From a bacterium ADurb.Bin243 (lineage in GTDB: Bacteria > Muiribacteriota > UBA9980), in contig MWBZ01000007.1 in the NCBI GenBank assembly GCA_002069765.1, forward strand, positions 1 to 64,000: a DNA stretch of 64,000 bases, in the 5' to 3' direction. The translations under genes were made by a program, and so were the position numbers. Below the pieces are notes generated by a model that saw only the letters and a program-made list of their open reading frames with translations, was not told where the DNA came from and ran no database searches. Positions 24,010-55,909 of this stretch are shown here, piece by piece; within the stretch, counting starts at the first letter, position 1; each line of letters starts with the position of its first letter.

Positions 24010-24044
24010 TTAGTCGTTAGTCTTTAGATGTTAGTGATTAGTGT
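24010..24044 (+). repeat. Degenerate TTAGTG microrepeats upstream of structured element A
   Basis: About five degenerate copies of a TTAGT(G/C) unit lie in tandem. Related units, on the opposite strand, occur at 54731-54766 beside element B, in the same order relative to the element. Confidence 0.5.
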
Positions 24045-24060
24045 TTATATGAAAGTTGAT

Positions 24061-24320
24061 TAACCATAATACCTGCCATTAAACTATAATGCCGACTTGC
24101 CAGCCAGCCATTATTGCAGCGCAGACGCGAGCGTACGCGCGTCTGCAAACGAACGAAAGGCAGTGAAGAGATTTGAGGCAGTTAACGAAAAGAGCATAAT
24201 TGAATTAAAGCGCCGGCAGAAAAACCGGCAATCTTCAAAAATAAAGCGACAGGCTAACCAGGGGTTGGAAGGGATTTTAAGGGAAGGAAGGGGCCATTGG
24301 CACCTTGCCTTCCCTTATCT
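24061..24320 (+). ncRNA. Structured repeat element, copy A (candidate non-coding RNA)
   Basis: This is one of two related elements in the window; copy B is at 54248-54570 on the minus strand. It has a promoter-like TATAAT (24085-24090), a conserved CCATTATTGC segment, hairpin I (arms 24121-24129 and 24138-24146), a variable linker, a small CCGG hairpin near 24212-24228, a conserved block containing AAATAAAGCG and GGGGTTGGAAGGGATTTT, and hairpin II (outer arms 24279-24287 and 24308-24316). Hairpin II shows an A-T pair where copy B has C-G, a compensatory change. A 101-codon frame over it is not protein-like. The family is not one I recognise. Confidence 0.55.
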
Positions 24321-24394
24321 ACAAAAAAGCGTTAATTATATTTCAATAGCGCCAAATAAAAAAAGGCGACGCATCGGCTCGCTAAAACCGGCTA

Positions 24395-48687: not shown

Positions 48688-48738
48688 GCGGTTACGCCTC
48701 GCAAGCACACACTCAATAACTAAATAACATAAAGCATC

Positions 48739-48780
48739 AAACGGCGCTCGTTTTGTTAAAACAGCGCCGTTTAATATTCT
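48739..48780. terminator. Hairpin terminator downstream of the FG-GAP-like gene
   Basis: A 10-bp stem, AAACGGCGCT / AGCGCCGTTT (48739-48748 and 48763-48772), with a 14-base loop. The T-tract is weak, so termination may be partial. Confidence 0.55.
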
Positions 48781-48782
48781 TA

Positions 48783-48811
48783 TTGAAATATATCCATTAA
48801 TCTGTTATCAT
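48783..48811 (+). promoter_or_regulatory. Promoter of the pseudouridine synthase gene
   Basis: TTGAAA (48783-48788), a 17-bp spacer and TATCAT (48806-48811), ending 7 bases before the ATG at 48819. Like 16034, its start point would coincide with the start codon, giving a possibly leaderless mRNA; no Shine-Dalgarno is present. Confidence 0.55.
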
Positions 48812-48818
48812 ATAGCTT

Positions 48819-53089: not shown

Positions 53090-54043
53090 TTATTCGCCGC
53101 CGTGCATTTCGTTGAGAACCCTTCTGCTGAGACGGAATTTATCGCGAAGTTTTTTATTTTCATCGTAAACCGAAAATGTTACGTCAGGCCCGGATACTTC
53201 AATTAATACATGCTGGAAGAACGAACCGCTATAGTTTTCGGTGCCGCCGCGGCCGATTTTGGTTCTGATAGGCGCGCCGCAGGAGCCGTTTATTATCTGA
53301 AAGACGTTATTTATCTTCTGCCTGTCGAAAAGATGTTCGTGGCCGCAAAAATAAGCGTCTACACGGTACTTGTTGAGAAGCGACCAGAATTTGTCGCGCT
53401 GAGATGGATATTTATCGAGAGAGCTGCCTATGTGGCCGCCTACGGGATAAGCCGGCGAGTGGCCGAATACGAAAACATGGTCGGCCGACATGCTCATCTT
53501 CAGATCGCCTTCCAGCCAGTTAAGCTGTTCATTGGTCAGGTTGTTATTTTCATCGGGAAGATTGGTCGTAAGGCATATAAAATGAGAACCTTTGTGGTCG
53601 AAAGAATAAGCGAGTTTATTGTACTTGCCGCTGAGCGTCGCTGGATTATCAAAGGTTTTTTTCAAAATATCTACGTGAGCCTGCGTGGTGCATTCGTGAT
53701 TGCCGAATGAAAAATATATGGGAACCCTATCCGTGAGAGGTTTCATTGCCGCGCGAAAATTATCGAGCTGTTTTTTGAATACATTGAGGTCTTTTTTACT
53801 GCCGAGAACCATATCGCCCTGGAATAGAACAAATTCAGGTTCGTCGCCGACGGCGTTCGCTACGATCTTATCGAGTATCGGTTTGTTTATGCCTATAGGT
53901 TCGCCGTTGGAACGCGAATCGGCCATGCTCACGAATTTGAACTCTTCCGCTAAAACCGTTCCCGCAGCCAGCATTACCATGCATAATACCGCCGCCGATA
54001 AAAATAAATTTCTTAAAACAACCGTGTACTTTGCTCTTTGCAT
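53090..54043 (-). CDS. Secreted metallophosphoesterase
   Basis: A 317-residue exported phosphoesterase. A signal sequence (LRNLFLSAAVLCMVMLAAGTVLAEE) precedes a calcineurin-like domain. Metal-ligand motifs: SMADSRSNG (weak D-x-H equivalent), LFQGDMV (GD), SFGNHECT (GNHE), and later HVFVFGHSPAYP and FCGHEH. The first D-x-H is altered to DSR, so activity may be limited. Substrates of such proteins include nucleotides, phospholipids and phosphoproteins. The start is ATG 54043 after an AGAGAG site; the frame reaching 54109 lacks one. It is a single gene between the GH57 operon and repeat element B. Confidence 0.85.
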   Translation of the reverse strand: MQRAKYTVVLRNLFLSAAVLCMVMLAAGTVLAEEFKFVSMADSRSNGEPIGINKPILDKIVANAVGDEPEFVLFQGDMVLGSKKDLNVFKKQLDNFRAAMKPLTDRVPIYFSFGNHECTTQAHVDILKKTFDNPATLSGKYNKLAYSFDHKGSHFICLTTNLPDENNNLTNEQLNWLEGDLKMSMSADHVFVFGHSPAYPVGGHIGSSLDKYPSQRDKFWSLLNKYRVDAYFCGHEHLFDRQKINNVFQIINGSCGAPIRTKIGRGGTENYSGSFFQHVLIEVSGPDVTFSVYDENKKLRDKFRLSRRVLNEMHGGE

Positions 54044-54247
54044 CTTGAAATACTCTCTTTCTACTTTTTTGATATTGATATCTTTACTATATCTTAATTT
54101 GAAATACAAGATTATAGTAACACATCAATTATACTCGCTAAAAAATGGTTTGTCAATTTTTCGAACAACTTTATAGCCTTTTTAATTTTATACTTGGAAA
54201 TATAGCTTTTATAGCTAAATACCGTTAAAAATTTTACGGCCTTTTTT

Positions 54248-54570
54248 TGATAAGGGAAGGCCAGGTGCCAAAGGCCCCTGCCTTCCCTTAAAATCCCTTC
54301 CAACCCCTGACTCGCCTGACGCTTTATTTTTGTGGAGTGCCGGCTTTTCAGTCGGGACTTTAACTCAGATTAGCTCTTTTCTTACGTTGCTATAAATTCT
54401 TATCTGTTTTTATTTTATTTTCCTAAAATCTGCTAAAATTTCTTTTATGCTCAGCTTTCTTTTATCTCTTTATTTGCTCTGTTTTTTGCAGACGCGCGCA
54501 CGCGCGCGTCTGCGCAGCAATAATGGCTTGTTGGTAAGTCCACATTAATGTTTTATATTATACTTTTTGG
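54248..54570 (-). ncRNA. Structured repeat element, copy B (candidate non-coding RNA)
   Basis: Related to the element at 24061-24320 but on the minus strand. In its reading direction it has a TATAAT-containing leader (about 54560), the conserved CCATTATTGC, hairpin I (54513-54488, a 12-13 bp GC-rich stem), a linker longer than in copy A by about 65 bases, the conserved AAATAAAGCG / GGGGTTGGAAGGGATTTT block and hairpin II (arms 54289-54281 and 54260-54252). Hairpin II has a C-G pair where copy A has A-T. A 63-codon frame over it is considered non-coding. Confidence 0.55.
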
Positions 54571-54799
54571 TTAATAACCTTTTTTTAAGTTGCCTTTAAG
54601 CTTATAGCAGGGGCCAGACAAAATTTTTGAGGAGCGTTGCGGCGGCACTAAGACCTCCATGTCTATCGGATGGGCGTGAGGTCTGTACACGAGTTAAACA
54701 AATAGAGCTCGCAGGGCGAGCCCCAGCCTTAACTATTCACTGTTCACTATCCACTATTCACTAATAAATTGCCCGGAGGGAACCTTTAAAAAAGTCCTT
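54571..54799. other. Non-coding region with two further hairpins
   Basis: No gene is seen. It holds a 7-bp hairpin (AGACCTC at 54651-54657 with GAGGTCT at 54678-54684) and a 6-bp hairpin (GCTCGC at 54707-54712 with GCGAGC at 54716-54721), then the degenerate microrepeats at 54731-54766. It may be part of the extended copy-B element. Confidence 0.4.
54731..54766 (-). repeat. Degenerate microrepeats upstream of structured element B
   Basis: Several units of an ATTCACT-like motif (reading TTAGTG/ATAGTG on the other strand) lie in tandem. Seen from element B's direction they lie upstream of it, as the units at 24010 do for element A. Confidence 0.5.
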
Positions 54800-55909
54800 T
54801 CAATTCAACTCGTCGATTGTGAATTTATAAAACCGTACCTTGTTCGGAGCGTCGCTTTTTTTCATATAAAAGATCGAGCCCGCGGCGTCTATGTATATGT
54901 ACCGCCGGGCCGGCATTTCCGGCGATTCCGGCACACGGACGCGGCCCATGAATTTTCCGTTTTTATTGAATTTATAAATATAACAAGCCGTGAACGCCCC
55001 GGACGCGCCGCCGTAAAGCGCCTCAATATAAACGCACCCCGAGGCGTCTGAGCCGGCCGGCCTGACGCTTTTAACGCCTTCGCCTTTAGCGCCGGCGGGG
55101 GCGAGTTCCTTCAAAAGCGGCACCCAGTCGTAATCTCCGGTTGCAAGATCGAAGGTGGACATTATAGCTTCGCTGCCGCGCGCCTCGACGCCGAATACGG
55201 CGGAACCGCCGTTGAAAGAGGCAGAACCCGTGAAATTTTTCGGAAATTTTTTGACCGGCGCGATGACGCCTTTTTTATAAATAAACGCGCGGTCGGACGA
55301 AGCGCCAAAAACGGCATTGAGCAGCAGGCCTTCATCGAAGGCGCCGCGCGCCGCTAACGGCCAGATGCCGCCCGGAGTGAAATCATCGGCGGGAGAACCT
55401 TCGGATAGAGCCGGAATGCCGATCTTTTTCAGCGGTGAAAATATTTTGCCGGAAGACATATCGGCTTCTATGACGCCTATTTCACACGCGCCGTCGAATA
55501 TAAAAAACGACGCGCGCGATGACGCAAGCCAGACGAATCCCGATAAATTCGCGCCTGCCTGAACTTTCAGCTCGCCCAGAAATTTTCCCGACATATCGAA
55601 ACGGCAAAGCCTTTCCCTGCCGGGATCGAGCACCAGCAGAAGATTAAGCTTCTCAAAAACACTGAAAGAAACTGGAAAATCAGAGGCGGCGTACATGGAG
55701 ATAGTTTCATCGTTAGTCCCCGCAGGCGACGGTTTAACTGAAGCGGAGCCGCCGGACGCGCAATCGATCTCGAATAATGGTATGGGCTGAAACGCACCGC
55801 TGCCGCCGAAGGCGGCACTAAACTCGAAAAAAGTTAAAAATAACGACGCTATAATAAAAAACGGCAATATTAAAACGCGCCCGACGCGAGAATTTTCTTT
55901 TATCTTCAC
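54800..55909 (-). CDS. Secreted propeller-like protein, function unknown
   Basis: A 369-residue protein with a signal sequence (VLILPFFIIASLFLTFFEFSAAFG). The body shows repeating beta-strand patterns (LLLVLDPGRERLCRFDMSGKFLGEL, YIYKFNKNGKFMGRVRVP, YIYIDAAGSIFYM), resembling a six-bladed NHL-like beta-propeller. No catalytic motif is visible; such proteins usually bind ligands or partners. The start is a GTG at 55909, with a GAGGTGCGGAA site in front of it. It is a single minus-strand gene next to repeat element B. Confidence 0.7.
   Translation of the reverse strand: MKIKENSRVGRVLILPFFIIASLFLTFFEFSAAFGGSGAFQPIPLFEIDCASGGSASVKPSPAGTNDETISMYAASDFPVSFSVFEKLNLLLVLDPGRERLCRFDMSGKFLGELKVQAGANLSGFVWLASSRASFFIFDGACEIGVIEADMSSGKIFSPLKKIGIPALSEGSPADDFTPGGIWPLAARGAFDEGLLLNAVFGASSDRAFIYKKGVIAPVKKFPKNFTGSASFNGGSAVFGVEARGSEAIMSTFDLATGDYDWVPLLKELAPAGAKGEGVKSVRPAGSDASGCVYIEALYGGASGAFTACYIYKFNKNGKFMGRVRVPESPEMPARRYIYIDAAGSIFYMKKSDAPNKVRFYKFTIDELN

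What the first reader, a model, noticed from the sequence alone, without database searches (positions are those of the whole stretch)
24061..24320. Two-copy structured element of unknown family with a compensatory base change
Copy A (24061-24320, plus) and copy B (54248-54570, minus) share a leader, hairpin I, a conserved AAATAAAGCG/GGGGTTGGAAGGGATTTT block and hairpin II, while the linker between differs in length and sequence. In hairpin II one pair is A-T in copy A and C-G in copy B, with the stem kept. Conserved ends plus a variable centre and pairing-preserving change suggest an expressed RNA or a mobile structured element. Both copies have a TATAAT-containing leader and, further upstream, degenerate TTAGTG microrepeats.
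Basis: partly seen in the sequence, partly recalled or inferred. Interest (0 to 1): 0.75.

Follow-up and report, generated by a model that had tools for sequence, protein, structure and literature searches.

The report
Genomic repeat with three-strand DNA fold
The two "copies" belong to a family of dozens of non-coding repeats scattered between genes in one genus of uncultured bacteria (Ca. Wallbacteria), and their ends are built so that one DNA strand can fold into a triple helix whose three strands have changed together in evolution, a pattern that suggests selection on such DNA folds.

Summary
Copies A (24056-24328, +) and B (54241-54579, -) belong to a dispersed intergenic family ("Y") with at least 55 copies in this genome and dozens in the three other genomes of its genus; none was found in 36 other genomes of the phylum, Rfam, phages, plasmids or viral contigs. 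No predicted ORF of 110 aa or more spans any of 123 copies examined.

Hairpins I and II show extensive compensatory change. The "conserved block" GGGGTTGGAAGGGAT before hairpin II is a mirror of that hairpin's purine arm and follows the purine-motif triplex code (G on G; A or T on A). Across 26 distinct arms it obeys the code at 316 of 338 positions (column shuffles 203±8), and swapping blocks between copies destroys the match (0 of 20,000 permutations). This matches the class I intrastrand triplex described for DNA, which reportedly cannot form in RNA, so I read Y as a DNA-structure element (kin in kind to E. coli BoxC/PIT/TM elements), not a small RNA gene.

Copy B lies at one junction of a reciprocal rearrangement; the other junction also carries a Y copy. 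No IS200/IS605-type transposase was detected. Function is inferred: a structural polymerase barrier and recombination site. In vivo folding is untested.

The parts
24056..24328 (+). Copy A of repeat family Y (whole element as aligned, with A-run)
24107..24117 (+). Head box GCCATTATTGC, copy A
   Evidence: conserved in most copies
24121..24146 (+). Hairpin I, copy A (arms vary between copies while complementarity is kept)
24241..24253 (+). Box ATAAAGCGACAGG (family consensus ATAAAGCGTCAGG), copy A
24261..24275 (+). Third strand S3 (reverse-Hoogsteen strand) GGGGTTGGAAGGGAT, copy A
   Evidence: mirror of R
24279..24293 (+). Purine arm R of hairpin II, copy A
24301..24316 (+). Pyrimidine arm of hairpin II, copy A, followed by ATCTAC and A-run
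54241..54579 (-). Copy B of repeat family Y (whole element)
54517..54527 (-). Head box GCCATTATTGC, copy B
54488..54513 (-). Hairpin I, copy B
54315..54327 (-). Box ATAAAGCGTCAGG, copy B
54293..54307 (-). Third strand S3, copy B
54275..54289 (-). Purine arm R of hairpin II, copy B
54252..54267 (-). Pyrimidine arm of hairpin II, copy B
54578..54649 (-). Remnant of a second structured repeat (X) upstream of copy B; full X (~230 nt imperfect hairpin, often tandem) precedes many other Y copies
48688..48818 (.). Site without Y in this genome; relative G037 carries a Y copy between the orthologous genes

Best explanation
Y is a genus-specific dispersed intergenic DNA repeat of about 230-350 bp. Shown by sequence: a head box, a self-complementary hairpin I, a fixed box (ATAAAGCGTCAGG), and a 3' end ordered 5'-third strand / loop / purine arm / loop / pyrimidine arm-3', the class I purine-motif intrastrand triplex order, with all three strands co-varying between copies. 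Inferred: when the purine-rich strand becomes single-stranded (replication, transcription bubble, negative supercoiling) the end folds into a hairpin with the third strand in its major groove, making a polymerase barrier at the edge of a transcription unit; because copies are numerous and similar, they also serve as homologous recombination and gene-conversion sites. How copies are first inserted is unknown.
For: Copy number and genus restriction. R/Y arm complementarity own vs swapped 10.6 vs 7.0 of 13; over 26 distinct R, 300 pairs vs 194 (sd 9) permuted, max 234. S3 vs R: own score 12.7 vs 6.2 swapped; permutation 411 vs 207 (sd 17), 0 of 20,000 reach it; mirror match beats direct match in 45 of 45 distinct pairs, which argues against an alternative Watson-Crick hairpin. 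Code: R=G gives G 397/415, R=A gives A or T 248/252; 316/338 vs column-shuffled 203 (sd 8). A triplex scan made without use of the family finds copies A and B plus one A-rich hit in the window and none in 5 Markov-random windows; in 94 kb of G037/G038 loci it finds 13 stems of 16-17 triads, all class I, none in shuffled loci. T opposite A (53 of 140) is allowed in the purine motif but not in a pyrimidine motif on the other strand. Purine-motif triplexes are stated not to form in RNA, and R-type triplexes to arrest polymerase (PMC4666352). No ORF of at least 110 aa spans any of 123 copies; 3' end a median 38 nt from the stop codon of convergent genes, or upstream of promoters (31 of 123 vs 0-5 shuffled). 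Rearrangement: 53090-gene next to MKKV gene in G037 and G038, MNNETKKV gene next to 54800-gene in G037 (same contig in G039); here the partners are exchanged and a Y copy sits at both junctions.
Against: No folding, transcription or replication data exist here. S3 windows were chosen as the best match in each copy, which favours the hypothesis (the permutation allowed offsets of 2; the column shuffle did not). Copies are related and exchange tops of hairpins, so changes are not independent events. Published tests of the E. coli relatives found no promoter, terminator or in vivo effect and no stable triplex in vivo (PMC4666352). One rearrangement is one case.
Confidence: 0.72

Rival explanations
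1. Y is a small RNA gene family (structured ncRNA), each copy transcribed from its leader.
For: Two hairpins with compensatory changes, fixed unpaired boxes, folding energy below shuffles (z -2.7 as RNA; similar as DNA, z -3.3).
Against: Promoter-like sites in 6 of 101 leaders; no U-tract after hairpin II; no Rfam match; RNAalifold long-range helix has almost no covariation; the third-strand code is one reported for DNA only (PMC4666352).
Confidence: 0.12
2. Y is a MITE-like non-autonomous transposon moved by an unidentified transposase, and the structures are transposition signals; there is no host function.
For: Dispersed; filled/empty differences between species; ends TTGATTA...TTATCAA are weakly inverted; species-specific subfamilies.
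Against: No target duplication could be defined; no Y1 transposase in the genus; most sites tested are shared by G000 and G039 and keep intact structures while linkers diverge, unlike decaying transposon relics.
Confidence: 0.3
3. The purine tract is conserved for G-quadruplex formation, not a triplex.
For: Several G-runs of 3-5 in S3 plus R.
Against: A quadruplex needs neither mirror symmetry, nor the A/T-on-A code, nor a complementary pyrimidine arm.
Confidence: 0.08
4. S3 is a competing arm that pairs with the pyrimidine arm in an alternative hairpin (switch).
For: Short direct matches such as GGAAGG exist.
Against: Mirror identity exceeds direct identity in 45 of 45 distinct pairs; in subfamilies such as GAGAGGGG/GGGGAGAG direct pairing is poor.
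Confidence: 0.04

Closest known systems
BoxC / PIT / TM_ECO intrastrand triplex repeats of E. coli and relatives (PMC4666352)
   Same: Dispersed, intergenic, both orientations, sometimes as inverted pairs; purine-motif intrastrand triplex; link to genome instability.
   Different: TM_ECO is a 37-nt class II motif (pyrimidine arm first), 9-nt stems, one nearly invariant sequence; Y is class I, up to 16-17 triads, sits at the end of a 230-350 bp element with its own head, hairpin I and boxes, and exists in many co-varying subfamilies.
H-DNA (mirror-repeat triplex)
   Same: Mirror symmetry of a purine tract.
   Different: H-DNA uses both strands of one tract; here a single strand supplies all three strands because an inverted repeat adjoins the mirror repeat.
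REP/BIME elements with RAYT transposase; IS200/IS605 ends
   Same: Many intergenic hairpin repeats.
   Different: No Y1 transposase found in any of the four genomes.
MITEs
   Same: Non-coding, dispersed, structured, gained and lost between species.
   Different: No clear terminal inverted repeats beyond TTGATTA/TTATCAA, no defined target duplication, no partner enzyme.

Membership tests
Class I purine-motif intrastrand triplex (structural class) | 5' reverse-Hoogsteen strand, then purine, then pyrimidine domain on one strand | tested here: met
Class I purine-motif intrastrand triplex (structural class) | G.GC, A.AT, T.AT triads with antiparallel (mirror) third strand | tested here: met
   316/338 positions of S3 vs R; 599/767 full triads canonical on a simple register
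   A strict scan of the window (stem at least 9, one mismatch, second loop up to 7) gave 0 hits; with an apical loop up to 25 copies A and B are found; 13 G037/G038 stems have at most one mismatch but exceed 15 triads and loops reach 7
Class I purine-motif intrastrand triplex (structural class) | Triplex actually forms in DNA | not testable with these tools
   needs CD/NMR/footprinting
TM_ECO / BoxC | Class II order and consensus CCCTCNCCC...GGGNGAGGG...GGGNGAGGG | tested here: not met
   only class I found
REP/RAYT or IS200/IS605 | Y1 transposase in the genome | tested here: not met
   PF01797 0 of 4 genomes, control genomes positive
Known Rfam RNA family | Match above gathering score | tested here: not met
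MITE | Terminal inverted repeats and target site duplication | tested here: inconclusive
   only TTGATTA/TTATCAA; empty sites too diverged to define a duplication

The most novel reading that the evidence does not exclude
Natural three-strand covariation shows that an intrastrand DNA triple helix is selected at dozens of chromosomal sites in a bacterial genus, where it works as a boundary or barrier element between transcription units and as a hot spot of chromosome rearrangement.
Probability: 0.4. Interest if true: 0.85.

Novelty: new variant of a known kind. Interest (0 to 1): 0.66.

Why it matters
Whether DNA triplexes matter in living cells is a long-standing open question; the best-studied E. 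coli motifs are nearly invariant, so evolution could not be asked. Here natural sequence variation supplies three-way compensatory changes, the kind of comparative evidence used for RNA structures, and so makes selection on the triplex itself testable, with many natural double and triple variants ready as substrates.

Tried and rejected
Rfam at gathering and at E<=10: nothing. Coding: an open frame runs through some tails, but loop and linker lengths differ by one or two bases between copies, so rejected. A common neighbouring gene or partner protein: neighbours are unrelated. IS200/IS605 or RAYT: no PF01797. Phage, plasmid, viral contigs: no match. Long-range head-tail helix from RNAalifold: pairs invariant or wobble, not supported in G038 heads. 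Strict triplex scan found nothing in the window because the main subfamily has a mismatched apical stem; repeated with a longer loop. Left-flank orthology was often unreadable because of X arrays, so I do not claim that one-sided matches are rearrangements. A first version of a stem script failed and was redone.

Full report
Observation. Copies A and B are present as described. blastn of copy A against its own genome (G000, 5.0 Mb, 317 contigs) gives dozens of further places at 71-89% identity; within the phylum only the four genomes of the same genus match, none of 36 others. One of these genomes, G037, has a contig of the same length as MGFH01000022.1, Ca. Wallbacteria GWC2_49_35, and G038 one of the same length as DIVV01000102.1, UBA6123, so the genus is inferred to be Ca. 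Wallbacteria. The 13-mer ATAAAGCGTCAGG occurs 55, 16, 32 and 59 times in G000, G037, G038 and G039, with 0-2 elsewhere and a reversed control of 0-1.

Anatomy. An alignment of 36 copies shows: a leader; the box GCCATTATTGC; hairpin I; an A-rich linker of variable length; the fixed box ATAAAGCGTCAGG; a purine block GGGGTTGGAAGGGAT; hairpin II with a purine 5' arm and a pyrimidine 3' arm; then usually ATC and 5-8 A. The head is recognisable upstream of 104 of 123 collected tails. Lengths between parts change by amounts that are not multiples of three, so it is not coding.

Pairing. In G000 most stem positions are invariant, and one pair shows G-C, C-G, A-T and T-A. Other species supply the rest: hairpin I arms in G038 differ from copy to copy and remain self-complementary (e.g. 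GCATGTGCGTAC/GTACGCACATGC, GCAGTCGCGCGC/GCGCGCGACTGC, GCATTCGCGAGC/GCTCGCGAATGC), and hairpin II arms differ between subfamilies (AAGGGAAGG/CCTTCCCTT, AAGGGGAGG/CCTCCCCTT, AGGGAGGGAG/CTCCCTCCCT, CAGGGGAGAG/CTCTCCCCTG). Arms match their own partner and not a swapped one.

Third strand. In every subfamily the purine block before hairpin II reads as the mirror of that hairpin's purine arm, with T allowed opposite A: GGGATAGATGGGGGTT before AAGGGGGAAGAAAGGG; GGGAGAGATTGGGAGG before GGAGGGAAAGAGAGGG; GGGATAGAGAGGGGT before AGGGGAGAGAAAGGG. This is the base code of the purine-motif triplex. Over 45 distinct pairs, G faces G 397 of 415 times and A or T faces A 248 of 252 times; swapped pairs score half; no permutation of 20,000 reaches the observed sum; mirror beats direct identity 45 of 45 times. 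Over 26 distinct arms the code holds at 316 of 338 positions against 203 (sd 8) when columns are shuffled. Because S3 was picked as the best match in each copy, I also ran a scan that knows nothing of the family: in the window it returns copies A and B and one A-rich site, none in random windows; in G037/G038 loci 13 class I motifs of 16-17 triads, none in shuffled loci, and among them further copies that lack the 13-mer.

DNA or RNA. The published survey of intrastrand triplex repeats (PMC4666352) defines class I as third strand, purine, pyrimidine, and states that purine-motif triplexes cannot form in RNA while pyrimidine-motif ones can. On the complementary strand a pyrimidine motif would need A, not T, at S3 positions facing A; 53 of 140 are T. 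With the lack of leader promoters (6 of 101), I read Y as acting as DNA.

Setting. No predicted ORF of 110 aa or more spans any of the 123 copies. If the gene on the 3' side converges, its stop codon lies a median 38 nt away; if it runs in the same direction, the element lies a median 139 nt upstream; a sigma-70-like promoter lies within 170 nt of the 3' end in 31 of 123 copies (0-5 in shuffles). Copy B precedes a perfect TTGACA-17-TATAAT.

Age, turnover, rearrangement. Many copies sit at the same place in G000 and G039, one also in G038 (L123/L153). Between most such pairs linkers have diverged more than tails, and tops of hairpin II change as blocks (ACC, CCA, CTC; G-C to T-A), which I take as gene conversion within the family. 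At window 48688-48818 this genome has no Y where G037 has one. At copy B, genes 53090-54109 and MKKV are divergent neighbours in G037 and G038, and genes MNNETKKV and 54800-55909 are neighbours in G037 (378 bp apart, no Y) and lie on one contig in G039; in G000 the partners are exchanged and both new junctions (copy B; L032 on contig C8) hold a Y copy. The simplest account is a crossover between two Y copies; G039 has a Y by MKKV in the other orientation, so the history is not simple.

Mechanism. Shown: sequence anatomy, covariation, location, the rearrangement. Inferred: folding in cells, polymerase barrier, boundary role. The E. coli relatives block DNA polymerase in vitro but gave no promoter, terminator or other in vivo effect (PMC4666352), so the functional part is held with low confidence (about 0.35); the structural identification with higher confidence (about 0.8).

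Noticed in passing
window 54578-54649; L041 950-1760; L074; L034: A second repeat, X (~230 nt, imperfect giant hairpin GGGGCAGGGCGCCAGACAAG...TTGTCTGGCCCCTGC with inner stems that also vary in a compensating way, e.g. GGCCCT/AGGGCC, GACTTC/GAAGTC, AGCGCC/GGCGCT), stands upstream of many Y copies, often in tandem; at orthologous sites it can be present in one species and absent in the other (winA vs G039:C475, L046 vs G039:C495).
   Followed up: partly
window 24010-24050 and 54701-54765: A third repeat: TTAGTGAATAGTGGATAGTGAACAGTG microrepeats followed by AAGGCTGGGGCTCGCCCTGCGAGCTC, also in G038 at about 90% identity.
   Followed up: no
L045/L232 (G000:C28), L230 (G000:C25), L229 and L231 (G037): All four places found in the genus with the searched group II intron 3' end (CCTACTCGAT) abut these repeats: two at exactly the same point in the Y tail, just past hairpin II on the minus strand (CTCGAT|AATCCCTTCCAACCCC), two next to another palindromic repeat. 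Looks like group IIC introns using repeat hairpins as landing sites; the intron class was not tested.
   Followed up: partly
L137, L138 (G037), L067, L075 (G000): A small insert around GCCGTTGCCGTCCATGGCGCG interrupts some Y copies, in two cases inside hairpin II.
   Followed up: no
L118, L123, L175; G037 loci L133, L134, L138, L139, L140, L143: Y copies often occur as close pairs on opposite strands, as described for the E. coli TM elements.
   Followed up: partly
hairpin II apex in G000/G039 copies: The three bases facing GGG are usually ACC, CCA, CTC, CAC or CAA, rarely the fully paired CCC: one imperfect position seems to be kept and its place changes between orthologous copies.
   Followed up: no
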